Program-made: the position numbers and the translations under genes
Notes under the pieces: model-generated
Told to the model about the DNA's origin: nothing
Seen by the model: the letters and a program-made list of their open reading frames with translations, nothing else
The model's database searches: none
Assembly: GCA_029008005.1 (NCBI GenBank)
Contig: JAQXIX010000037.1
Location: 1 to 51,145, forward strand
Direction: 5' to 3'
DNA length: 51,145 bases
From: Bacillota bacterium
Lineage (GTDB): Bacteria; Bacillota; Clostridia; Peptostreptococcales; Anaerovoracaceae
In this document: piece after piece, positions 976-51,145 of the stretch
Layout: each line of letters starts with the position of its first letter
How positions within the stretch are numbered: the first letter of the stretch is position 1

Positions 976-990
976 TTGAATTAGAGAGAA

Positions 991-1022
991 AAACCGCAAT
1001 CTTTGCGATTGCGGTTTTTTTA
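991..1022 (+). terminator. Intrinsic terminator after ferritin
   Basis: Perfect stem of about 9 base pairs (ACCGCAATC at 993-1001 with GATTGCGGT) followed by a T tract. The A tract on the other side could also let it serve the convergent hydantoinase gene. Confidence 0.85.
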
Positions 1023-1046
1023 TTGTTTCTGTGTCTGTATTCGGGT

Positions 1047-2477: not shown

Positions 2478-2624
2478 TAGTTGTTACCTCCTTTTTCAAA
2501 AATGCGAGAGATTCTCTCATTTATTCCGAAACCGGTGAAGCTCCGGATAATGCAAGAGCCTTTGGGTCTCAAAGGCTCCTGCGTAGTTATTATGTTTTAC
2601 TTTTCTTTATTTACCGGATAGCGA
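2478..2624 (-). promoter_or_regulatory. Hairpin-rich gap between permease and hydantoinase genes
   Basis: Read on the minus strand, three hairpins follow the permease stop. The first is an 8-bp perfect stem (2556-2563 with 2571-2578). The second is CCGG-loop-CCGG. The third is a GAGAG/CTCTC stem near 2498-2518 followed by ATTTTT just before the hydantoinase ribosome-binding site. The last resembles a weak intrinsic terminator and may tune hydantoinase expression relative to the permease. Confidence 0.45.
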
Positions 2625-5806: not shown

Positions 5807-5812
5807 ACGAAA

Positions 5813-5859
5813 AGAGGGCTGTGTATCGGCGTTGAACAATGTCGGTACACAGCCCTTTT
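5813..5859. terminator. Bidirectional terminator between convergent genes
   Basis: A long inverted repeat (GGGCTGTGTA near 5816 pairs with TACACAGCCC ending at 5855), with A and T tracts on its two sides, lies between the flavoprotein gene and the convergent serA. Confidence 0.85.
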
Positions 5860-5875
5860 GGTTCGTTAATTTCGA

Positions 5876-7012
5876 TTACTTAATGTAACGGGTTCTGATT
5901 ACGCCTGCAATATGCAGTTCGAATTCAGGAACGGATACATCTGCCAGAATATACGCATATCCGTTTCTTGTTGCTGACTGCATATTTGTTGCTCCGAATT
6001 CAACAAGACGTTCGAGAACATCTGAAGCAGCGCCTTCTTTGCAGAATACGGAAACTCTTGCTCCTGTACGCTTTCCGAGTGAAACGTTCGGCATGTTTAC
6101 GGAATTCTTGATATTGCCGTTTTCAAGGTAATCCATTACCTGAGTTACTGCCATTGAAGCACAGTTTTCCTCGGCTTCTGCTGAAGAAGCACCGAGATGC
6201 GGAAGAATAATGATATCATCCTGATCTGCATTGAGAACTGCATCATCAGCAAAGTCTGTAACATATGTCTCAACTTTACCGCTTGCAAGTGCAGCCAGAA
6301 GATCGTCATCGTTCATAAGCTTGTCACGTGAGAAGTTAAGGAAAATTACTCCGTCCTTCATCTGATCGAAAGCTTCCTTATTGATCATTCCCTTTGTTGA
6401 GTCGTTAGCAGGAACGTGTATTGAGATGAAATCACATACAGGATAAAGTTCCGAAAGATCAGAAACGATTTCAACTGATGCATCAAGGCTTTCTTTAGCC
6501 TTATCGCTGAGGAAAGCGTCATATCCGACAACCTTCATGCCAAGAGCAACAGCTGCATTGGCAACGAGGACACCGATTGCACCCAGTCCGATTACACCGA
6601 GAGTCTTACCCATGATTTCAATACCGGCAAACTGACCTTTTCCTTTTTCAATCTGCTTGCCTACGCCTTCGCTTCCGACGAGAGTTTTAGCCCATGAGTA
6701 GCCTGCAGTAACATTTCTTGCAGCTAAAATCATTCCGCAGATTACCAGTTCTTTTACGGCATTTGCATTGGCGCCGGGTGCGTTAAATACGCAGATTCCC
6801 TTTTCTGTGCATCTGTCAACAGGAACATTGTTTGTTCCTGCGCCGGCTCTGCCTATAGCAAGAAGATCGTCGGAGAAATCCATTTCATGCATATCATAGC
6901 TTCTGAGGATAATACCCTCAGCAACATTCTGATCGTCGATCAGAGTGAAATTGTCAGTAAGCTTGTTAAGACCTACCGGAGAAATTTTATTAAAAGTACC
7001 AATTTTATACAT
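5876..7012 (-). CDS. serA: D-3-phosphoglycerate dehydrogenase
   Basis: A 378-residue NAD-dependent enzyme that oxidises 3-phosphoglycerate, the first step of serine synthesis. The substrate domain carries the RAGAGTNNVPVDRCTEKGI motif, followed by the Rossmann fold with GLGAIG near residue 146. The second half has the FISIHVPAN and NFSRDKL motifs and the catalytic His in ILPHLGASSAEAEENCA. The tail after about residue 315 is a short ACT-like stretch ending in IRTRYIK, not a full regulatory domain. Downstream of serC with a 40-base gap, so the two form a serine operon without serB. Confidence 0.95.
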   Translation of the reverse strand: MYKIGTFNKISPVGLNKLTDNFTLIDDQNVAEGIILRSYDMHEMDFSDDLLAIGRAGAGTNNVPVDRCTEKGICVFNAPGANANAVKELVICGMILAARNVTAGYSWAKTLVGSEGVGKQIEKGKGQFAGIEIMGKTLGVIGLGAIGVLVANAAVALGMKVVGYDAFLSDKAKESLDASVEIVSDLSELYPVCDFISIHVPANDSTKGMINKEAFDQMKDGVIFLNFSRDKLMNDDDLLAALASGKVETYVTDFADDAVLNADQDDIIILPHLGASSAEAEENCASMAVTQVMDYLENGNIKNSVNMPNVSLGKRTGARVSVFCKEGAASDVLERLVEFGATNMQSATRNGYAYILADVSVPEFELHIAGVIRTRYIK

Positions 7013-31452: not shown

Positions 31453-32343
31453 TTATTCTGCCGGGTTAACGTGGACCATTACATGCTTGGCGTTCGGGAA
31501 TCGTTTTTCTATTCTGTCGTGTACGGCCTCGGCAATGTTGTGGGCTTCAAGAAGTGTTATTGAACCGTCTGCCCATATTTCAACATCAACATAGAACTTG
31601 CTTCCGAAACGCCTGGTCTGAAGGAGATCGATGCCCATTACGTTTTTGTTTTCCATTATGCAATCGCGAAGCTGCTGCTCAGTTTCTTCATCGCAAGAAC
31701 TGTCAACCATTTTGTTCATTGCGTCCATGAAAATATCGTAGGATGCCTTTGCGATGAAAAGGAAAATCACAAGACTGGCGATAGAATCCATAATGGGGTA
31801 TCCAAGCATCGCGCCGCCGATGCCGATAAGTGCGCCGACTGATGAAAGGGCATCCGATCGGTGGTGCCATGCATCTGCCATCAGAGCACTGGAATCGATT
31901 TTTTTGGCGTTGAAGCGAGTGTACCAGAACATGGCTTCTTTTGAGGCTATTGAAATTAATGCCGCAATAAGAGCGAGCATTCCCGGAGCCTTAAGAGTTT
32001 CGTAGCTGCCTCTGAGGATGTTCTGGAATGCGGGAATGCCTATACCGATTCCCGTGAGAAACAGAACCATGGCCAGCATTGTGGCAGCGACACATTCGAG
32101 GCGTTCATGACCGTAAGGGTGATTTTTATCCGGACCTTTTGATGAAAGACGAACGCCTATTATTACAATAAATGAACTGAATACGTCGGATGCAGAATGA
32201 ATCGCATCGCTGATCATCGCACTTGAGTGTGCGAAAATCCCGGCGAAGAGCTTAAGTCCGGCCAGAACAAGATTGCCGGCAATCGATATAACTGCCACTC
32301 TGGTGGCAGTTTTCTGAAATGAATTTTCGGTTTTTGTTTTCAT
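31453..32343 (-). CDS. Cation diffusion facilitator efflux transporter (Co/Ni/Zn type)
   Basis: A 296-residue CDF protein with about six membrane helices and a C-terminal cytosolic metal-sensing domain. Metal-site residues are in SDAIHSASD (helix 2) and ADAWHHRSD (helix 5); the cytosolic domain holds VDVEIWADGSITLLEAH and a final HVMVHVNP. I chose ATG 32343, preceded by GAGGT. It exports divalent metal ions in exchange for protons. The NiCo riboswitch directly upstream points to cobalt and nickel as the physiological cargo. Confidence 0.93.
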   Translation of the reverse strand: MKTKTENSFQKTATRVAVISIAGNLVLAGLKLFAGIFAHSSAMISDAIHSASDVFSSFIVIIGVRLSSKGPDKNHPYGHERLECVAATMLAMVLFLTGIGIGIPAFQNILRGSYETLKAPGMLALIAALISIASKEAMFWYTRFNAKKIDSSALMADAWHHRSDALSSVGALIGIGGAMLGYPIMDSIASLVIFLFIAKASYDIFMDAMNKMVDSSCDEETEQQLRDCIMENKNVMGIDLLQTRRFGSKFYVDVEIWADGSITLLEAHNIAEAVHDRIEKRFPNAKHVMVHVNPAE

Positions 32344-32373
32344 TTGATACCTCGCTTGATTATCTCGGGGCAT

Positions 32374-32416
32374 AAAAATACCCACGAATCAGTAATAATT
32401 ATTGCTGTCCCGTGGG
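32374..32416 (-). terminator. Terminator of the NiCo riboswitch expression platform
   Basis: On the minus strand CCCACG (32416-32411) pairs with CGTGGG (32386-32381), with a nearly palindromic inner stem and TATTTTT after it. The 5' arm overlaps the last aptamer stem, so ligand binding and termination are mutually exclusive. Confidence 0.8.
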
Positions 32417-32478
32417 GTAATCCACTGTCACTGATGCGACCCGGCTCCATGACCTGACTGTCACGGCCTGTTCAGTTT
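32404..32478 (-). promoter_or_regulatory. NiCo (czcD motif) riboswitch
   Basis: The minus strand reads in order ACTGAACAGGC, TGAC-loop-GGTCATG, AGCCGGG, and a GTGG/CCAC stem ending in GGGACAG. These are the conserved blocks of the Ni2+/Co2+ riboswitch, which is known upstream of czcD-type CDF exporters. Metal binding should block the overlapping terminator and turn on the exporter gene. A promoter lies just upstream. Confidence 0.88.
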
Positions 32479-32491
32479 TATTTCTGTAGAG

Positions 32492-38996: not shown

Positions 38997-40391
38997 ATGG
39001 CAGACGTTTTAGTAAGACAGTTGTTCAGACAGAAGGAAGATTTTGCAGACGCTGAAGTTACGGTGAGAGGCTGGGTAAGAACGAACAGAGGATCGAATAA
39101 GTTCGGATTTATCGAGCTTAATGACGGATCGTTTTTTAAGTCCGTTCAGATTGTATATGAAGCAGATGCTATTGATAATTATCGTGAAGTATCGAAGGCT
39201 CCTATTTCATCGGCACTTAAGATTACCGGCACATTTGTACTTACACCGGAAGCCAAGCAGCCTTTCGAAATTAAAGCAAAGGCTATTGAATTCGAAGCAG
39301 ATGCAGAAGCAGATTATCCTCTGCAGAAAAAGAGACATTCAATGGAATTTCTCAGAGAGATTGCTCATCTCAGACCAAGATCAAACACTTTTGCTGCTGT
39401 ATTCAGAGTAAGATCCGTTACTGCCTATGCACTTCACAAATTCTTCCAGGAAAGAAATTTTGTTTATGCGCATACACCTATTATTACGGCAAGTGACTGT
39501 GAAGGTGCGGGAGAAATGTTCCAGGTTACAACTCTCGATATGGATAATCCACCGAGAAATGAAGATGGAACGATAGATTATTCAAAGGACTTTTTCGGCA
39601 AGAAAGCAAACCTGACGGTAAGCGGACAGCTTAATGGTGAGACTTTCGCACTGGCCTTCAGAAATATATATACATTCGGACCTACATTCAGAGCAGAAAA
39701 CTCATATACTGCGAGACATGCTTCGGAATTCTGGATGGTTGAGCCGGAAATGGCCTTTTGCGATCTGAAGGGAGATATGGAAGTTGCGGAAGATATGATA
39801 AAGTATGTTATCAACTATGTACTTACAGAATGTCCTGAGGAGATGGAATTCTTCAACAAGTTTATTGACAAGGGTCTTCTTGACAGACTTGACAATATTG
39901 TTAATTCGGATTTCGCCAGAATCACATACACCGAGGCTGTTGAAATTCTTCAGAAATCAGGCGAGGATTTCCAGTATCCTGTTGAGTGGGGAATCGATCT
40001 TCAGACAGAGCATGAAAGATATATTACGGAGAAGGTATATAAGAAGCCGGTGTTTGTAACTGATTATCCGAAGGATATTAAGGCGTTTTATATGAGATTA
40101 AACGATGACGGCAAAACAGTAGCGGCATGCGACCTGCTTGTTCCCGGCGTGGGAGAAATCATCGGCGGTTCTCAGAGAGAGGAACGCTACGATGTTCTCA
40201 AGGAGAGAATCGAGGAAATGGGCATGACAGAGGAAGATTACAGCTGGTACATGGATCTCAGAAAATACGGCGGCGTGAAGCATGCCGGATTCGGATTGGG
40301 ATTTGAAAGAATAATCATGTATATGACAGGAATGAGTAATATCCGTGACGTTCTGCCGTTCCCTAGAACACCTAAATCAGCTGATTTTTAA
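38997..40391 (+). CDS. asnS: Asparaginyl-tRNA synthetase
   Basis: A 464-residue class IIb synthetase. An N-terminal OB fold ([35 protein letters not shown]) binds the anticodon. The catalytic core has [16 protein letters not shown] (motif 1 region), [26 protein letters not shown] (motif 2) and [31 protein letters not shown] (motif 3). The tail [11 protein letters not shown] is typical of AsnRS, distinguishing it from AspRS. The next gene follows after 11 bases. Confidence 0.96.
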
Positions 40392-40402
40392 GGAGAAACC
40401 AT

Positions 40403-40795
40403 ATGAAAAGACGTTTACTGGCAGCAGTTACTGCTGCATTGATGGTATTGTGCCTTTGCGCATGCGGAACAGAGAATGGCACTAATGCAGAAGAACAGCC
40501 TGTAACAGGAACATGTACAATATCTGTCGATGATTTCTGTGACGACATGAAAATCGATATACATGAAGGTGATACAGTCTATGATGTGCTGGTTGCTACG
40601 GGAGCGGAGCTTGAAACATCGGATACAGGTTCCGGAACTGCTATCGACGCAATAAACGGAATTGAAAACGGCAGTGAAGGACCTATGAGCGGCTGGATGT
40701 ATGAGGTCAATGACGAAACGCCTATGGATTACTGCGACAAGCACGAGGTCAGTGACGGAGATGACATCGAGTGGGATTTTTCCGACGGAATGTAG
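40403..40795 (+). CDS. Small lipoprotein with a DUF4430 (transcobalamin-like beta) domain
   Basis: A 130-residue lipoprotein. The N-terminus has a signal segment and a lipobox (LCLCAC, Cys at about residue 20). It is followed by a single DUF4430 domain (residues about 36-128) with TVYDVLVATGAELETSD, the signature MSGWMYEVND and the terminal SDGDDIEWDFSDGM. DUF4430 is the family annotated as similar to the C-terminal domain of transcobalamin. It follows asnS by 11 bases behind AAGGAG. It sits before, not after, the cobalamin riboswitch, so it is not directly under that switch. B12 binding is a reasonable guess from family and neighbours only. Confidence 0.82.
   Translation: MKRRLLAAVTAALMVLCLCACGTENGTNAEEQPVTGTCTISVDDFCDDMKIDIHEGDTVYDVLVATGAELETSDTGSGTAIDAINGIENGSEGPMSGWMYEVNDETPMDYCDKHEVSDGDDIEWDFSDGM
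40768..40793 (+). repeat. Direct repeat copy 1 (end of DUF4430 lipoprotein gene)
   Basis: These 26 bases, encoding the last residues EWDFSDGM of the lipoprotein, recur exactly at 41004-41029. Confidence 0.85.
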
Positions 40796-40837
40796 TGTCA
40801 ATCGTTTTTGAAAATGTCTTAAAAAATTAATAACATT

Positions 40838-40864
40838 AGCACCGAATACACGGTGCTTTTTGTT
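40838..40864 (+). terminator. Intrinsic terminator after the DUF4430 lipoprotein gene
   Basis: AGCACCG pairs with CGGTGCT (stem of 7 bp with an AATACA loop), followed by TTTTTGTTT. Confidence 0.8.
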
Positions 40865-41003: not shown

Positions 41004-41029
41004 CGAGTGGGATTTTTCCGACGGAATGT
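41004..41029 (+). repeat. Direct repeat copy 2 (orphan DUF4430 gene end)
   Basis: Identical over 26 bases to 40768-40793, but with no intact gene around it. In the matching frame it reads ETDEWDFSDGM. It is probably the remnant of a second DUF4430 gene or of a local duplication, and it lies just upstream of the riboswitch promoter. Confidence 0.75.
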
Positions 41030-41031
41030 GG

Positions 41032-41060
41032 TTGACATTACGACAATATAGATTTATTAT
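41032..41060 (+). promoter_or_regulatory. Sigma-A promoter of the cobalamin riboswitch operon
   Basis: TTGACA at 41032-41037, 17-base spacer, TATTAT at 41055-41060. Transcription would start near 41067, just before the aptamer. Confidence 0.75.
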
Positions 41061-41084
41061 GAAACAAGAATTGAATATTTCCAG

Positions 41085-41263
41085 CTCAGACATTTTCGGA
41101 AGCCGGTTAAATTCCGGCACTGTGTCTCAGCAACCGTGATATTTACGAAAGAGCATGTTCTTCTCCATGGAGAGAACGGCCACTGGAGAATACTCCGGGA
41201 AGGCGCTTTAGTAGGCAGGCTCCGTTGGGAGCCGTAAGGATTAAGTCGGTAGACCTGTCTGAG
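41085..41263 (+). promoter_or_regulatory. Cobalamin (B12) riboswitch
   Basis: The closing stem is CTCAGACA (41085-41092) with TGTCTGAG (41256-41263). Inside, in the right order, are the conserved blocks: CGGAAGCCGGTTAAATTCCGG, CACTGT, the B12 box region CAGCAACCGTGA, GCCACTGG, GGGAAGGCG, and AAGTCGGTAGACCTGTCTGA. These match the core of the cobalamin riboswitch family. Such elements switch off B12 transport or synthesis genes when cobalamin is abundant. A terminator follows at 41321. Confidence 0.93.
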
Positions 41264-41320
41264 TTTCATGTTAGTCTTCTGAGGTAGGACGGCGGTAATT
41301 ACTTATAATACAAACCACAG

Positions 41321-41345
41321 TGCACTCGGAATGGGTGCATTTTTT
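41321..41345 (+). terminator. Terminator of the cobalamin riboswitch
   Basis: TGCACTC (41321-41327) pairs with GGGTGCA (41333-41339), followed by TTTTTT. Its position about 60 bases after the aptamer is that of an expression platform. Confidence 0.82.
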
Positions 41346-41365
41346 GTTTGCAGCTGCACAGTTCT

Positions 41366-41456
41366 GTCCTCGGATGGAAGGATGCCTTTTCATCCGCAGG
41401 TTCGGGTAAGCAAGATGATAAAGCTTCTTATCCGGCCTGCTATCCTGAGAGAGACA
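41366..41456 (+). other. Second structured leader element of unknown type
   Basis: Between the riboswitch terminator and the first gene, a three-stem fold can be drawn. Its parts are an outer stem (TGTCCTCGGAT region with ATCCTGAG...ACA), CGGATG/CATCCG (41371-41376 with 41391-41396), and a strong GCAGG-CGGGTAAG / CTTATCCG-CCTGC hairpin (41396-41440). I do not recognise it as a named riboswitch class. Confidence 0.45.
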
Positions 41457-41490
41457 ATGGAAATGTGAAAAAAATAAGGAGGAGAAAAAA

Positions 41491-43047
41491 GTGAAGAAGA
41501 AAATGACAAGAACAATTGCAGTGCTGATGTGTCTCCTGACTGCAGTGGCATTCATGCCGACCTTTGCTTTTGCTGCAGAGCAGGAAGAACCTTCAGCTGA
41601 AATCGAAACTCAGCAGCAGGATGTTCAGGAAGAACAGGCGACTGAAGCCGAACCTGAATCAGAAGAAGTTGAAGCAGCATCAGTAGAGGAAGATGCAGAT
41701 GTTAAACCGGCGGAAGCAGAGGAAGGTAACACTGAGGCTGCGAATCCTATAAACGTTAAAATTACAGTGAGCAGCAAGGGCGTTATCGCGAAGGATAAAG
41801 ACGGAGAAGCGATGGCTTACAGAGACGTGACCGCAGAGGACGTTGACAAGGACGGTAAAATCACATATGAAGAAGCCCTTATTGCAGCTCAGAATAAATA
41901 TCTTGATGGAGGAGCTGATGCAAACTACGCGGCTTCATCAGGATGGGTAAATAAGTTCTGGGGACAGACAAGTGATGCAAGCTTTTCATTCCTCAGAAAC
42001 GACAGAATTGATATAGATCCTGTAACAGGATATTCAAGTACAGTAGACTTATGGGAAATTGCAGATGGCGATTATCTTACGGCATCAGTAAACAGTGATA
42101 CGGCTCATTATGCAGACTGGTACACTTATTTTGATAAAAAAGAAAATACTGTAAATGCTAAGGAGAAATTTACTCTCACACTTAAAGGCGGACAGGCAAT
42201 GGGTACTGCCTTTAATAATCCTGCAAAAGGTGTGACCGTGGGATACTGGAAGGACGGAAGCTTCGAAAGCCTTGATGCAAAAACAGATGCTGAAGGCCGC
42301 GTGAAAGTATCTTTCGCTGAACCGGGAACATATATAGTAACAGCATCGGGAAGTGTTTCCGATATGGTTTATGACTGGTCTAAAGGTACTACAGTAGAGG
42401 CTGATTGTCCGATTATCGCTCCGGTATGCATCGTTAATGTAAGGTCTTATGAAGACTCGATTGATGATCAGCAGAAAATGATCGATGAGCTTAAAAAAGC
42501 TGTTGCAGCTCTCAAAGCATCGGCAATATCACCTAATGCCAGAACTTCTGCAAGCTCCACATCAGTTAAGCTCTCATGGACTGTAATTGACGGAGCCGAC
42601 GGATATGAGGTAAGCGCTAACGGCGGAAGCTGGCAGGAAGTGACCGGAAACAGCAAGTCATATACAGGTCTCGCACCTGCAGCTAAATACAGCTACAAGG
42701 TAAGAGGTTTCGTATATCTTGACGGAGAAGGAACAGAAAAATATTATTCAAGTGTTTCTTCTGCCTCGGCAGTAACAACTCTCGATAAGACAGCAGTTAC
42801 TTATGCGAAAAGCAAGAAGAGAAAAATCACGGTAAAGTGGAATACCGTTAAAGGTTCACCGTCCTATCAGGTATATTTCAGCACAAACTCCAAGTTTACC
42901 AAGGGTGTTGTGAAGTACTCTGTATCGGGAACAGCGAAGACTTCAAAGAAGCTTAAGAAAGGTAAGAAGTACTATGTGAAGGTTCGCGCATACAAGAACG
43001 GAGTATACGGACCATGGTCTGCAGTTAAGACAGTAAAGTGCAGATAA
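41491..43047 (+). CDS. Secreted protein with EF-hand-like motif and C-terminal FN3 repeats
   Basis: A 518-residue secreted protein. A signal peptide (1-28) is followed by a Glu-rich linker (29-85). Next comes a domain starting at about 88 that includes a dockerin/EF-hand-type calcium loop DVDKDGKIT (117-125) and an aromatic stretch (WYTYFDKKENTVNAKEKFTLTLKG). A beta domain (GVTVGYWKDGSFESLD to TYIVTASG) and two fibronectin type III-like modules (about 345-430 and 432-518) complete it. No membrane anchor or sortase motif is seen. GTG start with AAGGAGGAG in front. It is the first gene behind the cobalamin riboswitch, so a B12-related surface role is likely, but its ligand is unknown. Confidence 0.72.
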   Translation: MKKKMTRTIAVLMCLLTAVAFMPTFAFAAEQEEPSAEIETQQQDVQEEQATEAEPESEEVEAASVEEDADVKPAEAEEGNTEAANPINVKITVSSKGVIAKDKDGEAMAYRDVTAEDVDKDGKITYEEALIAAQNKYLDGGADANYAASSGWVNKFWGQTSDASFSFLRNDRIDIDPVTGYSSTVDLWEIADGDYLTASVNSDTAHYADWYTYFDKKENTVNAKEKFTLTLKGGQAMGTAFNNPAKGVTVGYWKDGSFESLDAKTDAEGRVKVSFAEPGTYIVTASGSVSDMVYDWSKGTTVEADCPIIAPVCIVNVRSYEDSIDDQQKMIDELKKAVAALKASAISPNARTSASSTSVKLSWTVIDGADGYEVSANGGSWQEVTGNSKSYTGLAPAAKYSYKVRGFVYLDGEGTEKYYSSVSSASAVTTLDKTAVTYAKSKKRKITVKWNTVKGSPSYQVYFSTNSKFTKGVVKYSVSGTAKTSKKLKKGKKYYVKVRAYKNGVYGPWSAVKTVKCR

Positions 43048-43072
43048 GAGGAAAAAAACAATTTGACGCAGC

Positions 43073-43104
43073 GGAGCTGTAGCATGAAATGTGCAGCTCC
43101 TTTT
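43073..43104 (+). terminator. Partial terminator inside the cobalamin operon
   Basis: GGAGCTG (43073-43079) pairs with CAGCTCC (43094-43100), followed by only four T. It may lower expression of the genes after the first, abundant surface protein. Confidence 0.55.
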
Positions 43105-43149
43105 GCACTGTTTGGAAAAGGCTAATGTGCCACAGGGAAAGGATGAAAA

Positions 43150-44328
43150 GTGGAAGTTAAATCAAAGAAGAAGCTGTTTAACGGAATAATGGTTGCGCTG
43201 ATTGTCGTTATTGTCGGCTGTGGTATTATGGCAGTAGGCAATATCAAGGGATGGTTCGGCAGCAACAGTGAGTCTCCGGTCATCTCAGATGAAATCACCG
43301 GGGTTGCCAACATGGAAAGAGACGGAGTAGCATATACCCTCTCTGACAGGACTCCCATAAAAGCAGGCGATATCCTCGAAACCAAGTCGGGATCCAAAGG
43401 CGTATTTAATGTGTCCGGTGGCGATATGTTCTGTCTCGGAGAAAAGACAAGTATAAGGGCGGATGCATGTGATGAAAAAATTGCCTTTACTCTGAATGAG
43501 GGCGATGTGTATTCCGAAGCAGGTAAATCGGAAATCACATTCTCAGGCGGAAACCTGACAGTGATTCCGGAAGATGCCGTTTTTTCGATGAGTGTTCACA
43601 AAGGAAGCAGGGAAATAAGTGTTTTCAGCGGAAGTGTAAGCATCAGGACAGAAAATGAAAAGGAGCGGACAATAGAATCCGGAAGTAAAATTGTATTAAC
43701 CGAAGAAAATGCTTCCGACGCAAAGGCAGAAAAAATACCGGCATCGTCATTAAGCGAATTCCAGATTGAAATGCTCCTGGCAAGTGATAACAGTGATATA
43801 TGCTTCTCATCGGAAAAACTTAACAAAGTTGTTTCTGACAGAGAAAAGGAGCAGCGCAAGGCAGAAAAGGCTCTTGAGCAGGAAGCTATCGCAGTAGTGG
43901 AAGGAAACTCCACAGAAGATTCGCAGTCAGGTGATGCCGATAAGAAAAAGGTTAAGGTTTGCACTATACAGATACAGTGCAAGTCGATTCTCAGCAACAT
44001 GGGAAATCTGAAGGAGGGTAAAAACAGGTACGTTCCTTCAAATGGCGTTATTCTGGCTACAAGCAAGGTGGAGTTCAACGACGGAGATACAGCTTATGAT
44101 GTAACAAAGAGAGCATGTTCAACTGCGGGAATTCAAATTGAGGCCGCATATACTCCGGCATATGGCAGCTATTATGTCGAAGGTATAAATCATCTTTATG
44201 AATTCGACTGCGGTGAAACATCGGGCTGGATGTACAAAGTCAATGGCTGGGCACCGAATTACGGTTGCTCCGAATATAAATTAGAGGATGGAGACAGCAT
44301 AGTATGGTATTACACGTGCAGCAAATAA
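43150..44328 (+). CDS. Membrane-anchored FecR-like protein with C-terminal DUF4430 domain
   Basis: A 392-residue protein. A single N-terminal membrane anchor (about 9-30) is followed by a FecR-like beta domain (about 50-190: GDILETKSGSKGVFNVSGG, MFCLGEKTSIR, VFSGSVSIRTEN) and a charged helical linker (200-260). A DUF4430 domain follows (about 273-391) with TAYDVTKRACSTAGI, the signature GETSGWMYKVNGWAPNYG and LEDGDSIVWYYTC. GTG start. In other bacteria FecR domains relay signals for iron uptake; here the domain seems to be an extracellular scaffold. Its end overlaps the next gene by 25 bases, so the two are translationally coupled. Confidence 0.8.
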   Translation: MEVKSKKKLFNGIMVALIVVIVGCGIMAVGNIKGWFGSNSESPVISDEITGVANMERDGVAYTLSDRTPIKAGDILETKSGSKGVFNVSGGDMFCLGEKTSIRADACDEKIAFTLNEGDVYSEAGKSEITFSGGNLTVIPEDAVFSMSVHKGSREISVFSGSVSIRTENEKERTIESGSKIVLTEENASDAKAEKIPASSLSEFQIEMLLASDNSDICFSSEKLNKVVSDREKEQRKAEKALEQEAIAVVEGNSTEDSQSGDADKKKVKVCTIQIQCKSILSNMGNLKEGKNRYVPSNGVILATSKVEFNDGDTAYDVTKRACSTAGIQIEAAYTPAYGSYYVEGINHLYEFDCGETSGWMYKVNGWAPNYGCSEYKLEDGDSIVWYYTCSK

Positions 44329-46643
44329 TCATATCGGTAGTTACGGCGGTCATGCTGGCATTCGGTACGTTGCCGGCTGTTGCTTTTGCAGAAGAAGAAT
44401 CGGCGGAAGAGCAGCAGACTGAAGTTGTATGCGAAATTCCCGAAGAGGAACCGGTAGCAGAAGAGGAAGTTCCCGAAAAAGAGGAGACAGATAATAAACA
44501 GGCGGAATCTGTGAAAAAACAGGTTTCGGTAAATGTTGTCATCTCTATGGAAGATGCAGAATCGGACAGCATAGATATATGGTTTGAAGAAAGAACATTC
44601 TCGGCAGAGGAAGGCGCATCATTTAAAGACATAATCGACGTAATAATGCATGAGACAGAGCTGAACTTCACCTTTGACTCTGAAGGACGAATAGAGAGTA
44701 TTGCCGGAAACAAAGAGTCTTTGAAGACCGACGATACTCATAAATGGTACGTTAAAATTAACGGCGGAGAGCCTGAAGATACTGTAAATCTGCAGACTTA
44801 TACGCCTAATAATGGTGAAGCTTTTGAATTTGTCTATGCAGAGGAAATAAAAGATGAAATTGTGGAGGCTCAGGAGATTTCACAGGATGACACGGTTGCG
44901 ATTATGGCATCTGATAATGAGATAGCCTTCAAGTATGGTAATACCAGGGATTATCTCCTTAAAAACGGAGATAAGTCAGGCTGGATTTACGGTGATGAAT
45001 TCTCTGTAATTGGCAATGCCAGAGCCGGACTGATGACGGAGGCTCGAAAAAATGCTTATTACGCTAATCTTGTAAAAGAGCTGAATGAGCTGGGAACCGA
45101 AAAACTCCATAACAACCAGTCGAGTGATAACTCTAAGGTAGTAATAGCTCTGACATCAATTGGAATTAATCCGGCTGATGTTGAAGGGTATAATCTGCTG
45201 CAGCCGCTGTCGGACATGAATTATCTGTTGAAGCAGGGAATGAACGGACCTGTCTGGGCGCTTATAGCTTTTGATTGCGGCGGATATGAGATTCCGGCTG
45301 TCAGTGCAGGGGGTGAGCAGGTAACAAGAGATAAGCTGGTGACAATGATTCTGAAGTGGCAGCACAGCGACGGGGGATGGTCATTCAGCGGAAACTCCGA
45401 TATTGATATGACTGGTATGGTTATTCAGTCTCTGGTTCCTTATTACAATAAAGATGCGAAAGTAAAAGCTGCAGTAGATAAGGCGCTTCTCTGGCTCTCG
45501 AAAAATCAGAATGACAAGGGTGAATTCACAACGGGCGTCGGAGCGTCAAGTGAATCTCAGAGCCAGGTGATAGTTGCTCTCACATCCCTCGGAATCGACC
45601 CTACCAAGGATTCAAGATTCCTGAAGAACGGCAAAGGTGCTTTAGATGCTCTACTTTCGTATTATGTGGAAGGCGGAGGATTTAAGCATATATCGAGAGA
45701 GTGGAAGGCTAACGGACTTGCCACTGTGCAGGGTAATTACGCGCTGGTAGCCTATTACAGATTCATTAACGGACAAAGCAGTCTTTATAACATTACAGAC
45801 AGCAAAGGCTATGAAATAATAATTGAATACAACAAGGATAACAGAAAGCCTGTCGAAAATACGAAAACTGAAGAGGAGCAGAAGGCAGAAGGACTTAGTG
45901 CTTCTGCGGGAACCAAGGCACTCGGTCTTATCAGTGCCTCGGGAAATCTTTCGGAGAATGCCGTACGTGTCATTGATATGATAAAAGCTGTAAATTCTGC
46001 GAAAAGTCCTGATGCCGTGAAGGTGACTGAAGCCTACAAGGCCTATATGGATCTGGGACCGGCGGAAAGGCTGGCAGTAGAGAAAGATGAAGCCTGGAAG
46101 ACCTTCGAGAAAATTACGAAGAAAATCGGAGATGAATATCATTACGATAAACCTTCAGGTATAGATTTAAGATCTAACAAGGAAGAAATACTTCCGTGGT
46201 ATGTTAAGCTGGAGCCGGAAAACAAGAAATTCACCGAAAAACAGGAGAAAAAAATCCACGACATTCTCGGTGAAGGAAGCAAAATCTTCAGTTCATATGA
46301 CATAAAGCTTACCAATACACTTGACAACAGCAGCTGGGAGCCGGAGAATGTAATAAATGTTAAATTCGAGGCCGATGAATTCGACTACAGTCTTGAGCCT
46401 GTTGTGGTACATGAGGGCAAGAACGGAAGACTTGAATTTATTGATACGGAAACAGACAGGGAGAACGGCACTGTGTTCTTTAAGACAACGGAATTTTCTC
46501 TGTATGGGCTTGCCGGAACAGCGTCGGATGTCAAGACTCTGACCGGTACCGAATCAGTAAATGTAATGCCGTGGTGCCTCGGAGCCGCAGCTGCGCTTGC
46601 GGCGGTAGTTGTGATGGCAGTAATCAGGAGAAAGCTTAGATGA
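44304..46643 (+). CDS. Transcobalamin-like surface protein (DUF4430 + alpha/alpha toroid)
   Basis: A 779-residue membrane-anchored extracellular protein. Order: signal peptide (1-29), acidic linker, DUF4430 domain (about 72-178; HKWYVKINGGEPEDTVNLQTY). Next is an alpha/alpha-toroid domain of the terpenoid cyclase/prenyltransferase fold (about 205-515), seen as repeated helical units such as DKLVTMILKWQHSDGGWSF, KALLWLSKNQNDKGEF and QSQVIVALTSLGIDP. A linker, a beta domain (about 620-740), a C-terminal membrane helix (752-772) and a positive RRKLR tail follow. Transcobalamin and intrinsic factor bind B12 between an alpha toroid and a small beta domain of the DUF4430-like type; here the order is reversed. 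With the upstream B12 riboswitch and downstream ECF genes, a cobalamin-capture role is likely. Confidence 0.8.
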   Translation: MVLHVQQIIISVVTAVMLAFGTLPAVAFAEEESAEEQQTEVVCEIPEEEPVAEEEVPEKEETDNKQAESVKKQVSVNVVISMEDAESDSIDIWFEERTFSAEEGASFKDIIDVIMHETELNFTFDSEGRIESIAGNKESLKTDDTHKWYVKINGGEPEDTVNLQTYTPNNGEAFEFVYAEEIKDEIVEAQEISQDDTVAIMASDNEIAFKYGNTRDYLLKNGDKSGWIYGDEFSVIGNARAGLMTEARKNAYYANLVKELNELGTEKLHNNQSSDNSKVVIALTSIGINPADVEGYNLLQPLSDMNYLLKQGMNGPVWALIAFDCGGYEIPAVSAGGEQVTRDKLVTMILKWQHSDGGWSFSGNSDIDMTGMVIQSLVPYYNKDAKVKAAVDKALLWLSKNQNDKGEFTTGVGASSESQSQVIVALTSLGIDPTKDSRFLKNGKGALDALLSYYVEGGGFKHISREWKANGLATVQGNYALVAYYRFINGQSSLYNITDSKGYEIIIEYNKDNRKPVENTKTEEEQKAEGLSASAGTKALGLISASGNLSENAVRVIDMIKAVNSAKSPDAVKVTEAYKAYMDLGPAERLAVEKDEAWKTFEKITKKIGDEYHYDKPSGIDLRSNKEEILPWYVKLEPENKKFTEKQEKKIHDILGEGSKIFSSYDIKLTNTLDNSSWEPENVINVKFEADEFDYSLEPVVVHEGKNGRLEFIDTETDRENGTVFFKTTEFSLYGLAGTASDVKTLTGTESVNVMPWCLGAAAALAAVVVMAVIRRKLR

Positions 46644-47530
46644 GAGAAGATACTTTTTCTTCGTTCAATCCTGCTGTGAATTTCATATTTTTTATCGGGG
46701 CGGTAGTTTTCGGTATGTTTATTGTGCATCCGGTGTTTATGGTTTGTTCTGTGGTCACAGCCTTTGCATATTATGCAACTGTGAAGGGAACAGGCGCTGT
46801 TAAGCTGCTGGTGGGAATACTTCCGGTATTTGTACTTATCTCACTGTTTAATCCTCTTGTGAACACGCGGGGAGAGACGGTGCTGTTCATGCTCGGAAGC
46901 AGACCGTACACTCTGGAAGCACTGTATTACGGAATGTCGATTGGCGGGATGTTTGCCGGAATAATCCTCTGGTTCGCATCCTACAGCTGCGTTATGACGA
47001 GCGATAAATTTATGTATATATTCGGGAGACTGATACCATCAGTCTCTCTCGTGCTTACTATGATTCTCAGGTTGATCCCGTCTTTCAGGAACAAGACGAA
47101 ACAAATTGCCGGAGCCAGAATGGCTGTCGGTAAATGGGGAAGCTCTGCGCCATTAAAAGAAAAAATAAATGACGGCGCGACTATACTTTCATCGCTTACG
47201 GGATGGGCTCTGGAGGGCGGCATTGTAATGGGCGACAGCATGAGAAGCCGAGGATACGGCAGCGGGAAGAGAACAAGTTTCAGCATATACAGATTTGATA
47301 TGCGTGATATAATTCTTACTGCAGCAATGATGCTTTTAATGGGATTCGTAGTTTACTGCTGTGCAATAGGAGTTTCAGCGGCTGAATTCACACCTGATTT
47401 ACGAATAGCAGGTACGGAGAATCCTTTATTTATACCGGCGTCTGCAGCGTATTTTCTGTTTTTGATAATACCTACGGGAACAAATATTGCGGAGGAAATC
47501 AAATGGCGCATTTTGAGATCAAAAATTTAA
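46640..47530 (+). CDS. ecfT: ECF transporter transmembrane component T (copy 1)
   Basis: A 296-residue membrane protein of the EcfT/CbiQ family that couples the ATPases to the S component. It has about six hydrophobic segments and the two Ala/Arg coupling motifs, seen as AGARMAVG and SMRSRGYGSGKRTSF. It ends with SFSIYRFDMRD and two more helices. Its start overlaps the upstream stop (ATGA) and its end overlaps the ATPase gene by 28 bases. A homologue, copy 2, lies at 49890. Confidence 0.9.
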   Translation: MREDTFSSFNPAVNFIFFIGAVVFGMFIVHPVFMVCSVVTAFAYYATVKGTGAVKLLVGILPVFVLISLFNPLVNTRGETVLFMLGSRPYTLEALYYGMSIGGMFAGIILWFASYSCVMTSDKFMYIFGRLIPSVSLVLTMILRLIPSFRNKTKQIAGARMAVGKWGSSAPLKEKINDGATILSSLTGWALEGGIVMGDSMRSRGYGSGKRTSFSIYRFDMRDIILTAAMMLLMGFVVYCCAIGVSAAEFTPDLRIAGTENPLFIPASAAYFLFLIIPTGTNIAEEIKWRILRSKI

Positions 47531-49176
47531 CTTTTTCATACCCGGGAGCAGAAAGAAAACCTGTTTTAGATAATGTCAGCCTTACTGTCAGAGAAGGAGA
47601 ATACATTACTGTCTGCGGTAAAAGCGGAAGCGGGAAAACGACACTTCTGAGAAATCTTAAAAGTGTTCTGGCGCCTCACGGCAAAATAAGCGGTGAGATT
47701 CTGTTTAAGGGCCAGTTTCTTTCTGAAGTGGATTTGCGTACACAGTCGTCTAAAATAGGATATGTAATGCAAAATCCCGACAGTCAGATTGTAACTGACA
47801 AGGTTTGGCACGAGCTGGCCTTCGGACTTGAGAGCCTCGGAATGGATCAGAAGACGATCAGACTCAGAGTTGCCGAAATGGCCAGTTACTTCGGCATTCA
47901 GGGATGGTTCCACAGAGATGTGGCGGAGCTTTCGGGAGGACAGAAACAGCTTCTGAATCTGGCATCAATAATGGCCATGCAGCCGGAAGTGCTGATACTC
48001 GATGAGCCTACATCCCAGCTGGATCCCATAGCTGCCGGAGATTTTCTCAACACTGTTAAAAAAATCAACCTCGAACTTGGCACGACTGTAATAATTACGG
48101 AGCACAGACTTGAAGATATATTCCACGCTTCCGATAAGGTTGTCGTTTTAGAAAAGGGCAGCATAATCGCATGTGACAGTCCGAAGAAGGTGGGAGATTT
48201 TCTGAGAGGCGAAAATAACGATATGTTTACTGCAATGCCGGCGCCTGTCCAGATATATTACGGAGTAAAGGATAAGCTTGCGACCGAAACAGAATGCCCT
48301 CTTACCGTACGTGAGGGACGAAACTGGCTTAGTGAGATATTTGACGGCAGGGAGATTAAGGATTCCGAGGTCACGGAAGAGGAGTTCGGTGAAATAGGAG
48401 TGCCTGCAATATCAGTAAGAGAAGCCTGGTTCAGATATGAGAAGAAGTCGCCGGATGTACTGAAGGGGGTTTCTCTCGGCGTTCAGAAAGGCAGCTTTCA
48501 CGCTATAGTAGGTGGAAACGGAACAGGTAAATCAACACTTCTTAAGTCTGTGTGCAATATATGCAAACCTTACAGAGGCAACATACTGATTGACGGTAAA
48601 AGTATCGGCAAGTATAAGGACGGTGAGCTCTTCAAGAATAATCTGGCAATGCTCCCTCAGGATGCACAGAGCATTTTCGTAAAGAAAACAGTCAGGGAGG
48701 ATCTTCTGGAAATGATTGAGAAAAAAGACGATTCCGACAAGGAAATCGCTCGTGTTTCCGCCATGTGTGATATAGAAGAGCTTCTTGACAGTCACCCTTA
48801 CGATCTGTCAGGCGGAGAACAGCAGAGAGCGGCACTGGCGAAAGTGCTTTTGACAAATCCGCGTGTTCTCCTTATGGACGAGCCTACAAAGGGCATGGAT
48901 AATTTCTTCAAAAAGAAATTCGCGTCTATACTCAGAGCCCTTAAGGATGATGGTGTAACAATTCTTATGGTATCTCACGATGTGGAATTCTGTGCGGCAT
49001 ATACAGATATGATAAGCATGTTTTTCGACGGAGGAATCATTACTACCAACACACCGAACAGATTTTTCTGTGAGAACAGTTTCTATACAACAGCCGCAAA
49101 CAGAATGAGCAGACATATTTTCAAAAATGCAATTAACAATGAGGATGTAACAGAGCTATGCAGAAGAAACCTGTAA
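47503..49176 (+). CDS. ecfA: ECF transporter fused double ATPase (EcfA-EcfA')
   Basis: A 557-residue protein with two complete ABC ATPase domains. Domain 1: Walker A GKSGSGKTT (39-47), Q-loop YVMQNPDSQI, signature ELSGGQKQ, Walker B VLILDEPTSQLDP. Domain 2: Walker A GGNGTGKST, LPQDAQSIF, signature LSGGEQQRAALAKV, Walker B VLLMDEPTKGMD. Most ECF systems encode the two ATPases as separate genes; the fused form is known in some. All catalytic motifs appear intact in both halves. It overlaps both neighbours, giving strong translational coupling. Confidence 0.94.
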   Translation: MAHFEIKNLTFSYPGAERKPVLDNVSLTVREGEYITVCGKSGSGKTTLLRNLKSVLAPHGKISGEILFKGQFLSEVDLRTQSSKIGYVMQNPDSQIVTDKVWHELAFGLESLGMDQKTIRLRVAEMASYFGIQGWFHRDVAELSGGQKQLLNLASIMAMQPEVLILDEPTSQLDPIAAGDFLNTVKKINLELGTTVIITEHRLEDIFHASDKVVVLEKGSIIACDSPKKVGDFLRGENNDMFTAMPAPVQIYYGVKDKLATETECPLTVREGRNWLSEIFDGREIKDSEVTEEEFGEIGVPAISVREAWFRYEKKSPDVLKGVSLGVQKGSFHAIVGGNGTGKSTLLKSVCNICKPYRGNILIDGKSIGKYKDGELFKNNLAMLPQDAQSIFVKKTVREDLLEMIEKKDDSDKEIARVSAMCDIEELLDSHPYDLSGGEQQRAALAKVLLTNPRVLLMDEPTKGMDNFFKKKFASILRALKDDGVTILMVSHDVEFCAAYTDMISMFFDGGIITTNTPNRFFCENSFYTTAANRMSRHIFKNAINNEDVTELCRRNL

Positions 49177-49883
49177 ACAAAAAGACAATACTGAGCATAC
49201 TGATAATTCTTGTGCTGATTCCCCTGACGGTTTTCGCATCCGGATATATGGGGGACAGAAATTACTACATAGCGGGAGTAATAATCATAATTTTGACAAT
49301 GATTCCTTTTTTCGTGGGATTCGAGGGGAGAAAACCTCATCCGAGAGAAATGGTGACCATTGCCGTAATGACTGCAATAGCAGTTGTTTCGAGAGTTGCG
49401 TTCATTATGGTGCCCGCCTTCAAGCCTATTCTGGGTATAGTGATGATAACGGGAGTTGCTCTCGGATCTCTGGCCGGATTTATGGCAGGATCCCTGGGTG
49501 CATTTGTCAGCAACTTTATTTTTGGACAAGGCCCATGGACACCGTGGCAGATGCTTGCCTTCGGCCTGGCGGGATTCATTGCTTCATATCTCGCAAAGGC
49601 AGGAATCATGAAATTCGACACATGGAAAAGATCACTTCTGTCAGCTGTTTGCGGAGGAATTCTCATACTTATTTTCGTGGGACCGCTTCTTGATACATGC
49701 ACCTTCTTTATTGCGACACCGGGAATGGGAGCCGGTGCGGCAGCAGCCGTATATCTGGCAGGTATTCCCGTAAACGCAATTCACGGTGTTTCTGTGGCAC
49801 TGACGCTTCTTTTTGTAGGCAAGCCTATAAAAGACAAACTTGACAGACTGAAGACAAAATACGGAATTTTAGATGAGGAATAA
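49158..49883 (+). CDS. ECF transporter S component (putative cobalamin-specific)
   Basis: A 241-residue membrane protein with about six to seven helices. The layout is of the ECF S-component superfamily: a first hydrophobic segment, then EMVTIAVMTAIAVVSRVAFI, GVALGSLAGFMAGSLGAFVSNFIFGQGPWTPWQMLAFGLAGFIASY with the conserved Gly/Ser-rich loop, and a C-terminal helix pair. It starts within the ATPase gene (19-base overlap). Specificity cannot be read directly, but riboswitch control and flanking DUF4430 proteins point to cobalamin, as for the CbrT group. Other possible cargo includes cobinamide. Confidence 0.82.
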   Translation: MQKKPVNKKTILSILIILVLIPLTVFASGYMGDRNYYIAGVIIIILTMIPFFVGFEGRKPHPREMVTIAVMTAIAVVSRVAFIMVPAFKPILGIVMITGVALGSLAGFMAGSLGAFVSNFIFGQGPWTPWQMLAFGLAGFIASYLAKAGIMKFDTWKRSLLSAVCGGILILIFVGPLLDTCTFFIATPGMGAGAAAAVYLAGIPVNAIHGVSVALTLLFVGKPIKDKLDRLKTKYGILDEE

Positions 49884-49889
49884 TTATCG

Positions 49890-50783
49890 ATGAGATTTGA
49901 CAGCTATCATCCTGCAATAAACTTTATATATTTTACGACTGTAATCGCCTGCACCTTTTGGTTTAATCATCCGGTGTTCCTGGCGATTTCTTTCGCATGT
50001 GCCTTTGCTTATTCCGTCAAGCTGAGGGGAATAAAAGGGCTTGTGTTTAATCTTTGCCTCATACCGCTTATCGGGCTGTATGCATGGTGGTATTCATATT
50101 ACAACCATTTCGGAGTAACAAACCTGAGGGTGAATTTCGCAGGAAACTACATAACTCTTGAATCTGTTGCTGCGGGATTCGCAGTGGGAGTTGCCGCAGC
50201 CGCGGGAATAATGTGGTTCAGCTGCGTCTTTACAGTTATTTCATCAGATAAGGTGGTGTACCTTCTGGGGCGAATATCACCGAAGCTTTCTCTTTTTTTC
50301 TCAATACTTCTGCGAATGTTTCCGAGAATCGGAAGGAGATTTACTAAGCTGAACGTATCACGCAAAGGCATAGGACACGGTGCCGCTCAGGGGAGAATAT
50401 GCGAAAAAATATTAAATCTGATAAAGATTCTGTCGTCTCTTGTTTCCTGGACAATAGAGGAATTTATTGAAAGCTCCGTATCAATGAAAAACAGAGGGTA
50501 TTCATTAAAAGGGAGAACATCTTTCAGCATTTACAGATTCGACAACAGGGACAGAAGCCTTGTAGTAATAATGTTCGCATGTATGACAGTTACGATGATG
50601 GCTGTAATGCTTGATCAGACAAGAATGATATACGATCCGGAACTGATTATGTACAGGATAACACCTGTATCAGTTGGATTTTATGTGGTGTACGGATTTC
50701 TGCTTCTCCTTCCGGGGATACTGCAGACAATGGATGAAATGAAATTCAGGAGGAATTTGAAAAATACAGTTGACAAAATGTAA
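49890..50783 (+). CDS. ECF transporter transmembrane component T (copy 2)
   Basis: A 297-residue EcfT homologue. It has an N-terminal MRFDSYHPAINFIYFTTVIA like the other copy (FNPAVNFIFFIGAVV), the coupling stretches NVSRKGIGHGAAQ and SMKNRGYSLKGRTSF, and the same SFSIYRFDNRD motif as copy 1. The two copies are clearly duplicates but have drifted considerably. It follows the S component by six bases. Having two T genes on either side of one ATPase and one S gene is uncommon. Confidence 0.88.
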   Translation: MRFDSYHPAINFIYFTTVIACTFWFNHPVFLAISFACAFAYSVKLRGIKGLVFNLCLIPLIGLYAWWYSYYNHFGVTNLRVNFAGNYITLESVAAGFAVGVAAAAGIMWFSCVFTVISSDKVVYLLGRISPKLSLFFSILLRMFPRIGRRFTKLNVSRKGIGHGAAQGRICEKILNLIKILSSLVSWTIEEFIESSVSMKNRGYSLKGRTSFSIYRFDNRDRSLVVIMFACMTVTMMAVMLDQTRMIYDPELIMYRITPVSVGFYVVYGFLLLLPGILQTMDEMKFRRNLKNTVDKM

Positions 50784-50797: not shown

Positions 50798-50868
50798 GGT
50801 AAAAAATGACAAACGACAGTAAAAGGGGTTAGGGAACTGTTGATTGTCTTTTGGAAAGGAGATTGGAG

Positions 50869-51145
50869 ATGTCAGGCAGAAGGAAAGGAATAAACCTTCT
50901 GCAGAGGGGGATAGCTGCTTTTTTATTGCTCTTAATTACGGTGTTTTCAGTGTATACGAACGTCAGAGGGGCTGAAGCATTTGCAGATGAGGAGGTGGTA
51001 ATTGCGGAAGAGCCTGAGGGCAGCGGCGATGAAATAAGTGAACTGGGTACTGTCCGGGTGGAAGGAGAAGATGAGAAGTCGGAGCAGGTAGTAGAAGCTA
51101 TGGAAGACAGCGGAGGACAGATATTCTTTTCGTCGGATACACCGC
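50869..51145 (+). CDS. Secreted protein, N-terminal part only
   Basis: ATG 50869 with GAAAGGAGATT in front opens a frame that runs off the window after 92 codons. Visible are a basic start, a signal-type hydrophobic stretch (residues about 14-27) and a strongly acidic Glu-rich stretch (residues about 36-80), resembling the linkers of the neighbouring surface proteins. It probably belongs to the same system. The rest of the protein is not in the window, so no domain can be called. Confidence 0.7.
   Translation, partial: MSGRRKGINLLQRGIAAFLLLLITVFSVYTNVRGAEAFADEEVVIAEEPEGSGDEISELGTVRVEGEDEKSEQVVEAMEDSGGQIFFSSDTP

What the first reader, a model, noticed from the sequence alone, without database searches (positions are those of the whole stretch)
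41085..50783. Cobalamin-riboswitch operon coding for a transcobalamin-like surface capture apparatus plus an ECF importer
A recognisable cobalamin riboswitch controls one long, overlapping gene block. It encodes a secreted FN3 protein, a FecR-DUF4430 membrane protein, a DUF4430-alpha/alpha-toroid membrane protein, EcfT, a fused EcfA-EcfA', an S component and a second EcfT. The toroid and DUF4430 domains are the two fold types that clamp B12 in animal transcobalamin and intrinsic factor. This suggests a Gram-positive surface system that captures cobalamin and hands it to a CbrT-like S component. ECF transporters for B12 and the family link of DUF4430 with transcobalamin are known; a dedicated bacterial multi-protein receptor of this layout, controlled by B12, is the part I would call new.
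Basis: partly seen in the sequence, partly recalled or inferred. Interest (0 to 1): 0.9.

Follow-up and report, generated by a model that had tools for sequence, protein, structure and literature searches.

The report
Bacterial transcobalamin-like vitamin B12 uptake operon
A Gram-positive bacterium carries a gene block under a vitamin B12 switch that appears to catch B12 outside the cell with protein domains folded like our own B12 carriers and pass it to a membrane importer; the general idea was predicted in 2007, but the link to the B12 switch across many bacteria makes it directly testable.

Summary
A full-length Rfam cobalamin riboswitch (41071-41276, 47.7 bits) precedes seven same-strand genes: FN3 secreted protein, FecR-like/DUF4430 membrane protein, DUF4430-like/toroid membrane protein, EcfT, fused EcfA-A', S component, second EcfT. 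The predicted DUF4430 domain matches the beta domain of human transcobalamin (TM 0.82 over the target). Foldseek's best hits for the toroid protein are transcobalamin, terpene cyclases close behind. The S component is nearest to B12-specific CbrT among solved structures. In 60 same-family genomes, 50 of 106 DUF4430 places lie within 10 kb downstream of a cobalamin riboswitch (0.77 expected). Of 50 toroid loci tested in other Bacillota, 41 have the riboswitch upstream. The genome has B12 enzymes but no detected corrin methylase. Best reading: a riboswitch-controlled corrinoid scavenger whose surface alpha and beta domains capture B12 and pass it to a CbrT-type ECF importer. Binding and hand-off are inferred. 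Not new in kind: Burroughs et al. 2007 predicted B12-scavenging operons of transcobalamin-like surface proteins with CbiO/CbiQ. The riboswitch link, the CbrT assignment and an ECF importer with extracellular binders go beyond what I read there.

The parts
41032..41060 (+). sigma-70-like promoter site
   Evidence: 11 of 12 consensus matches; consensus match only, such sites are not enriched over shuffles there
41071..41276 (+). cobalamin riboswitch aptamer (RF00174)
   Evidence: 47.7 bits, E 6.3e-9, full model 1-189
41319..41341 (+). terminator-like hairpin, probable expression platform of the riboswitch
   Evidence: 10-pair stem followed by T run; present in the predicted fold; role inferred
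41491..43047 (+). secreted protein: N-terminal part shared with a second riboswitch-associated protein of this genome, two FN3 stretches at the C-terminal end
   Evidence: fn3 35.2 bits, 2 stretches; 29% identity, E 4e-19, to the C43 protein; export read from the sequence
43150..44328 (+). protein with N-terminal hydrophobic helix, FecR-like domain, long helix and C-terminal DUF4430 (transcobalamin beta-domain fold)
44304..46643 (+). exported protein: divergent DUF4430-like domain (about aa 94-183), alpha/alpha toroid (about aa 225-505), C-terminal hydrophobic segment
46640..47530 (+). EcfT (CbiQ family) 1
   Evidence: CbiQ 32.1 bits, cut-off 25
47503..49176 (+). fused EcfA-EcfA' ATPase
   Evidence: two ABC_tran stretches, E 1.2e-62; TIGR04520 350.7 bits, cut-off 315
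49158..49883 (+). S component, CbrT-like
   Evidence: PF07155 53.2 and PF12822 40.8 bits, over cut-off; best PDB hit 6fnp E 2.9e-5; profile of 30 relatives: 6fnp E 1.9e-17, 3p5n (riboflavin) 6e-7
49890..50783 (+). second EcfT
   Evidence: 31% identical to EcfT 1, E 7e-42; no Pfam hit
40403..40795 (+). small DUF4430 gene with lipobox-like start, between asnS and the riboswitch, with its own terminator-like site 40838-40857; possible accessory binder, not in the riboswitch unit
   Evidence: DUF4430 56.6 bits; terminator-like site; lipobox and asnS (38997-40391) named by eye from the translations

Best explanation
A cobalamin-riboswitch-controlled uptake operon. When intracellular B12 is low, transcription reads through and the cell makes surface proteins whose alpha/alpha-toroid (alpha) and DUF4430 (beta) domains clamp a corrinoid outside the membrane, as the two domains of animal transcobalamin do, here partly on separate membrane-anchored chains. 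The DUF4430 protein, usually encoded next to EcfT, brings the ligand to a CbrT-type S component, and the EcfT/EcfA-A' module drives import. Shown here: gene content, riboswitch, conserved association, predicted folds, CbrT affinity of the S component. Inferred: corrinoid binding by the surface proteins, cooperation of toroid and DUF4430, hand-off to the S component, repression by B12.
Against: No binding or transport data. Neither the DUF4430 nor the toroid profile hits transcobalamin in the PDB by sequence. VIA's 50 listed rows for the toroid model are terpene cyclases and sugar enzymes, without transcobalamin, and the Foldseek superpositions on transcobalamin have rmsd 5.4-6.6 (ranks 1-6). 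FecR is below cut-off. NCBIfam's best S-component model is the folate family, below its cut-off (30 of 60 bits). Ten of 40 S-component regions show neither DUF4430 nor toroid in the DNA held, several cut by contig ends. Nine of 50 toroid loci lack a riboswitch within 9 kb upstream. 72 of 114 riboswitches have no DUF4430 within 10 kb downstream. The genome has two FecCD permeases that could belong to another B12 importer. PF00590 is absent from an 86% complete genome altogether, although all 14 controls have it, so incompleteness may play a part.
Confidence: 0.77

Rival explanations
1. Same architecture, but the physiological ligand is another corrinoid or a precursor (cobinamide, another cobamide, alpha-ribazole) rather than cobalamin.
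For: CbrT binds cobalamin and cobinamide (PMC5997447 passages); no ligand data here.
Against: The genome encodes corrinoid-dependent enzymes and shows no corrin methylase, so it needs a finished or nearly finished corrinoid; which one is open.
Confidence: 0.4
2. The surface proteins are B12-regulated adhesins or structural proteins that do not bind corrinoids; only the ECF module imports B12.
For: FN3 and FecR-like domains; the ORFs downstream in two relatives carry adhesin-type domains; the toroid fold is shared by many enzymes.
Against: The two fold types that clamp B12 in transcobalamin recur together near B12 riboswitches, and DUF4430 precedes EcfT even in regions where no toroid was detected, for example L083, L092, L096, L098, L099.
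Confidence: 0.12
3. A cobalt or nickel importer of the CbiMNQO kind under B12 control.
For: EcfT is CbiQ family and EcfA matches CbiO models.
Against: The S component matches ECF-ribofla_trS/ECF_trnsprt and CbrT; no CbiM or CbiN match was listed for the operon's S component or EcfT genes; no corrin methylase that would use the cobalt was detected.
Confidence: 0.04

Closest known systems
Transcobalamin-like SLBB operons with CbiO/CbiQ predicted by Burroughs, Balaji, Iyer and Aravind 2007 (PMC1796856; abstract, passages, section 7 part 1 and one referee report read)
   Same: Signal-bearing beta-grasp (DUF4430-type) and alpha/alpha-toroid proteins in conserved operons, often with a second SLBB paralogue, plus CbiO-like ATPase and CbiQ-like protein; predicted to scavenge B12; hosts usually lacking key B12 synthesis enzymes.
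   Different: The word riboswitch does not occur in the main text held; no CbrT-type S component is named in what I read. Here the riboswitch link is counted, the S component assigned, S fused to EcfA-A' in some genomes, and two EcfT and a FecR-like domain occur.
Animal transcobalamin, intrinsic factor, haptocorrin
   Different: In the window the clear beta domain is on a separate protein; the toroid protein has only a divergent beta-like domain, N-terminal rather than C-terminal; no sequence-level match.
ECF-CbrT of Lactobacillus delbrueckii (PDB 6FNP; PMC5997447 passages)
   Same: Nearest solved S component; same ECF module parts.
   Different: There one ECF module is shared by several S components; here the module is encoded with the S component, EcfA-A' is fused, there are two EcfT genes and co-encoded extracellular proteins.
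BtuG/BtuH surface B12 binders of Bacteroidetes (PMC8941943 passages)
   Same: B12-binding proteins encoded in cobamide transport loci with cobamide riboswitches.
   Different: Different phylum and other proteins; [quoted passage not shown] Not compared by sequence here.
RUMGNA_00854 (PDB 3u7z, 'putative metal binding protein', Ruminococcus gnavus)
   Different: A single small domain (97 residues in the listing) with no tested function given there.

Membership tests
Cobalamin riboswitch (RF00174) | Rfam score at or above gathering, full-length aptamer | tested here: met
   47.7 bits against 31.5, model 1-189
ECF transporter | Two ECF-type ATPase domains | tested here: met
   two ABC_tran stretches; TIGR04520 over cut-off
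ECF transporter | EcfT membrane subunit | tested here: met
   CbiQ over cut-off for EcfT 1; EcfT 2 31% identical to it
ECF transporter | Membrane S component | tested here: met
   PF07155 53.2 and PF12822 40.8 bits, both over cut-off
CbrT (B12 S component) | Closer to CbrT than to S components of other vitamins | tested here: met
   6fnp E 1.9e-17, next 3p5n (riboflavin) 6e-7; solved structures only, no tree; that chain A of 6fnp is CbrT itself is inferred from its length and the paper's deposit
CbrT (B12 S component) | Binds and transports cobalamin | not testable with these tools
   needs a transport assay
[quoted passage not shown]
   H315-325 then E330-335, E340-346 in the model; DUF4430 71 bits; feature taken from PMC1796856
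Transcobalamin-like SLBB clade (DUF4430) | Operon with CbiO-like ATPase and CbiQ-like protein | tested here: met
   window; relatives
Transcobalamin-like SLBB clade (DUF4430) | Host usually lacks key B12 synthesis enzymes | tested here: inconclusive
   no PF00590 match, but genome 86% complete and only this family was sought
Animal transcobalamin/intrinsic factor | Beta-domain fold | tested here: met
   5no0 TM over target 0.82
Animal transcobalamin/intrinsic factor | Toroid resembling transcobalamin more than other toroids | tested here: inconclusive
   Foldseek ranks transcobalamin 1-6; VIA's listed rows are other toroids
Animal transcobalamin/intrinsic factor | Toroid then beta domain on one chain | tested here: not met
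   window: a divergent beta-like domain precedes the toroid and the clear DUF4430 is on another gene. The animal order with adjacent domains occurs in 1 of 79 relatives' ORFs (L169) and in L100 of the same family
Animal transcobalamin/intrinsic factor | B12 sandwiched between the domains | not testable with these tools
   no ligand modelling available
FecR | Pfam FecR over cut-off | tested here: not met
BtuG/BtuH | Sequence or fold match to BtuG/BtuH | not tested
   compared only through the literature

The most novel reading that the evidence does not exclude
A split bacterial transcobalamin serving an ECF importer: B12 is clamped between an alpha toroid and a beta domain on two separate membrane-anchored chains that assemble on the ligand, and the loaded complex docks on the CbrT-type S component. 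This would be an ECF transporter with dedicated extracellular substrate-binding proteins, where S components are otherwise held to be the substrate-binding part, and a living relative of the bacterial source proposed in 2007 for animal B12 carriers.
Probability: 0.45. Interest if true: 0.8.

Novelty: new member of a known kind. Interest (0 to 1): 0.6.

Why it matters
How Firmicutes catch B12 is little known (PMC8941943 says so, passage), while surface binders of Bacteroidetes have been studied. Here a class of transcobalamin-like proteins that was predicted in 2007, and for which my ten literature searches listed no test of function, is tied to B12 riboswitches and to a B12-type importer across many Bacillota, including Ruminococcus bromii and Paenibacillus loci. 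If right, it names B12 capture genes for many of these bacteria, gives an ECF importer with outside binding proteins, and bears on the proposal of Burroughs et al. 2007 that animals took their B12 carriers from Gram-positive bacteria.

Tried and rejected
Cobalt/nickel import was considered because of CbiQ/CbiO names and set aside on the S component. Sequence-only links to transcobalamin were sought with profiles and not found; the link is by fold. VIA-align did not list transcobalamin among its 50 rows for the toroid model, so I do not claim that the toroid alone is transcobalamin-like. NrdJ was sought as a B12 enzyme and not found. A B12-box motif check (43 places in 42 loci) agreed at 17, against 2.1% of random segments; it misses weak aptamers, so I turned to direct Rfam scans.

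How the 41 of 50 was reached: the 50 loci are L111-L166 in rank order without seven that hold little upstream DNA (L113, L114, L127, L128, L143, L144 skipped; L110 too); L167-L187 were not searched. In one search contig numbers and accession suffixes did not always agree, so 42 of 50 is by coordinates and strand. L111 proved false. 26 of 28 directly scanned loci were confirmed; those 28 had been picked among the coordinate matches, so 26 of 28 is not an unbiased rate. The other 15 have agreeing contig numbers. Four of the 41 (L118, L120, L121, L153; 27-27.8 bits) are below Rfam's threshold. Nine loci without: L111, L116, L131, L132, L147, L150, L152, L163, L165; L152 and L163 lie in one genome.

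Other limits. The 106 DUF4430 places include several in one protein, and 114 riboswitch places include some below Rfam's threshold, so they are not independent events. Of 41 genomes with an S-component match, regions were fetched from 38 (40 regions; G012, G042 and the own genome left out, as were weak second matches in G002 and G046). One of the 19 toroid-protein matches (L072) covers only its C-terminal part, and L105's is weak. EcfA matches can be other ABC ATPases; the S count is the safer one, and L110's S gene was hidden by an antisense ORF in my ORF choice.

Literature: 10 searches; none listed a paper that I could see to join cobalamin riboswitch, DUF4430/toroid and ECF. Two papers hold the words transcobalamin, ECF and riboswitch: of PMC2667541 I saw passages, PMC12713380 I did not open. 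PMC1949818 was seen in listings only. Rodionov et al. 2009 (PMC2612444) is not held and was not read.
Full report
Observation. The aptamer is 41071-41276, 47.7 bits against a gathering score of 31.5, full length. A promoter-like site lies at 41032-41060 and a terminator-like hairpin at 41319-41341, before the first gene at 41491; promoter-like sites are not enriched over shuffles in that region. The 41061-41350 transcript folds more stably than its shuffles (z -3.36). This is the layout of a transcription-terminating riboswitch; the off-switch function is inferred from the family.

Genes. Pfam gives DUF4430 (71 bits) in 43150-44328, FN3 in 41491-43047, CbiQ in 46640-47530, two ABC stretches in 47503-49176 and ECF S-component families in 49158-49883. 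The last gene, 49890-50783, has no Pfam hit but is 31% identical to the first EcfT. The toroid in 44304-46643 is below Pfam's cut-off, but a profile of 19 toroid regions hits squalene-hopene and related cyclases; a weak DUF4430-like stretch precedes it. The FecR match is below cut-off.

S component. The window protein's only PDB match below E 0.3 is 6fnp (E 2.9e-5). A profile of 30 relatives gives 6fnp E 1.9e-17, 3p5n (riboflavin) 6e-7, 4hzu 1.9e-4 and the folate S component 0.05. PDB 6FNP is ECF-CbrT, characterised for cobalamin and cobinamide (PMC5997447, passages). NCBIfam's best S-component model is the folate family, below cut-off.

Same-family survey. In 60 genomes of the window's family, drawn evenly and including its own, the S component has a match in 41 (some weak ones, such as G042 at 25% identity, may be other S components), the toroid protein in 34 (G057's match lies outside the toroid), a cobalamin riboswitch in 45, DUF4430 in 46. 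Among 14 control genomes DUF4430 rings in 2 and the riboswitch in 8. Of 106 DUF4430 places, 50, in 28 genomes, lie within 10 kb downstream of a cobalamin riboswitch on the same strand and contig; 0.77 are expected from riboswitch number and genome size. Of 114 riboswitches, 42 are followed by a DUF4430 within 10 kb. In 40 regions around S-component matches of 38 genomes, 29 hold DUF4430, 19 a match to the toroid protein, 15 a riboswitch, 14 an S component fused to EcfA-A', and 10 neither DUF4430 nor toroid, several of them cut by contig ends. A frequent order is riboswitch, toroid, DUF4430, EcfT, EcfA-A', S. In L100 toroid and then DUF4430 share one 535-residue ORF on the same strand after a riboswitch, the order of the animal proteins.

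Named relatives. Of the 78, 72 have a DUF4430 ORF, 61 an EcfA match, 60 an S component, 60 an EcfT, 47 an ORF with both toroid and DUF4430; 22 have S fused to EcfA-A' and 14 two EcfT. In 79 toroid ORFs, DUF4430 lies close before the toroid in 20 and close after it in 1. Genomes of 50 of the 78 loci were searched for riboswitches. By coordinates and strand 42 of 50 have one within 9 kb upstream; direct scans of 28 of these 42 loci confirmed 26, left L118 below threshold and showed L111 to be false. With 15 more whose contig numbers agree (L118 among them), 41 of 50 stand, four of them below Rfam's threshold. Nine of 50 do not.

Own genome. G000 (1.63 Mb, 86% complete) has three DUF4430 places and three cobalamin riboswitches, one of them below threshold. 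On contig C43 the weak one (25.6 bits) precedes a gene of at least 1113 codons whose protein has a DUF4430 domain and an N-terminal part like the window's FN3 protein (E 4e-19). On C22 a strong one (107.8 bits) precedes an exported-looking protein cut off by the contig end. The genome encodes MetH-like, lysine 5,6-aminomutase and D-ornithine 4,5-aminomutase proteins, some in part, no PF00590 match, no NrdJ and two FecCD permeases. It therefore looks like a B12 consumer, with the caveat that the genome is incomplete and only one synthesis family was sought.

Mechanism. Low B12 lets the operon be read. The DUF4430 protein, held by an N-terminal helix (residues 3-34 in the model), and the toroid protein, held by a C-terminal hydrophobic segment, face outwards (topology inferred). 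By the precedent of transcobalamin, whose separately expressed domains assemble on cobalamin (PMC5599065, passages), I infer that the toroid and a DUF4430 domain clamp the corrinoid and pass it to the CbrT-like S component. That DUF4430 precedes EcfT even in regions where no toroid was detected (for example L083, L092, L096, L098, L099) suggests that it is the part nearest the importer. The two EcfT genes and the FN3 protein have no assigned role; the FN3 protein may help to hold the complex at the wall.

What is known. Burroughs et al. 2007 named the beta-grasp superfamily, noted SLBB-toroid fusions and paralogue pairs in operons with CbiO and CbiQ in bacteria that usually lack key B12 synthesis enzymes, and predicted B12 scavenging; [quoted passage not shown] The word riboswitch is absent from the main text held. 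So the kind is known as a prediction. Added here are the counted link to cobalamin riboswitches, the CbrT assignment, the S-EcfA-A' fusions and the view of an ECF importer with its own extracellular binders. Ten literature searches listed nothing that I could see to join these, within an open-access library only.

Verdict. A real, conserved, B12-controlled uptake system, very probably for corrinoids; a new member of a predicted kind; the binding step is the one to test.

Noticed in passing
32403-32485 (-) and 31453-32385 (-): NiCo riboswitch (54.1 bits) just upstream of a cation-efflux family gene, about 9 kb from the B12 operon.
   Followed up: partly
40768-40796 and 41004-41032: A 29-base direct repeat (97%): the 3' end of the small DUF4430 gene recurs just before the operon's promoter-like site, perhaps a remnant of a second copy. 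L122 has tandem riboswitch plus small-DUF4430 units about 1031 bases apart.
   Followed up: partly
50851-51144 (contig end): Exported-looking ORF after the operon, cut by the contig end. By eye it resembles the start of ORFs in the matching position in L110 and L112, which carry thioester (TED_2) and T-Q ester-bond domains and so look like covalent surface adhesins.
   Followed up: partly
L008 (C43) 3-3341 and 4011-4171, minus strand: Second large DUF4430 protein of the same genome behind a sub-threshold cobalamin-riboswitch match.
   Followed up: partly
L009 (C22) 5466-6058: Strong cobalamin riboswitch (107.8 bits) before an exported-looking protein truncated by the contig end.
   Followed up: no
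L075, L076, L084, L090, L118, L133 and others: S component fused to the C-terminal side of EcfA-A' (14 of 40 same-family regions, 22 of 78 named loci), one chain carrying ATPases and S component.
   Followed up: partly
G053:C63:18651-21285: Three DUF4430 places alternate with two cobalamin riboswitches over 2.6 kb.
   Followed up: no
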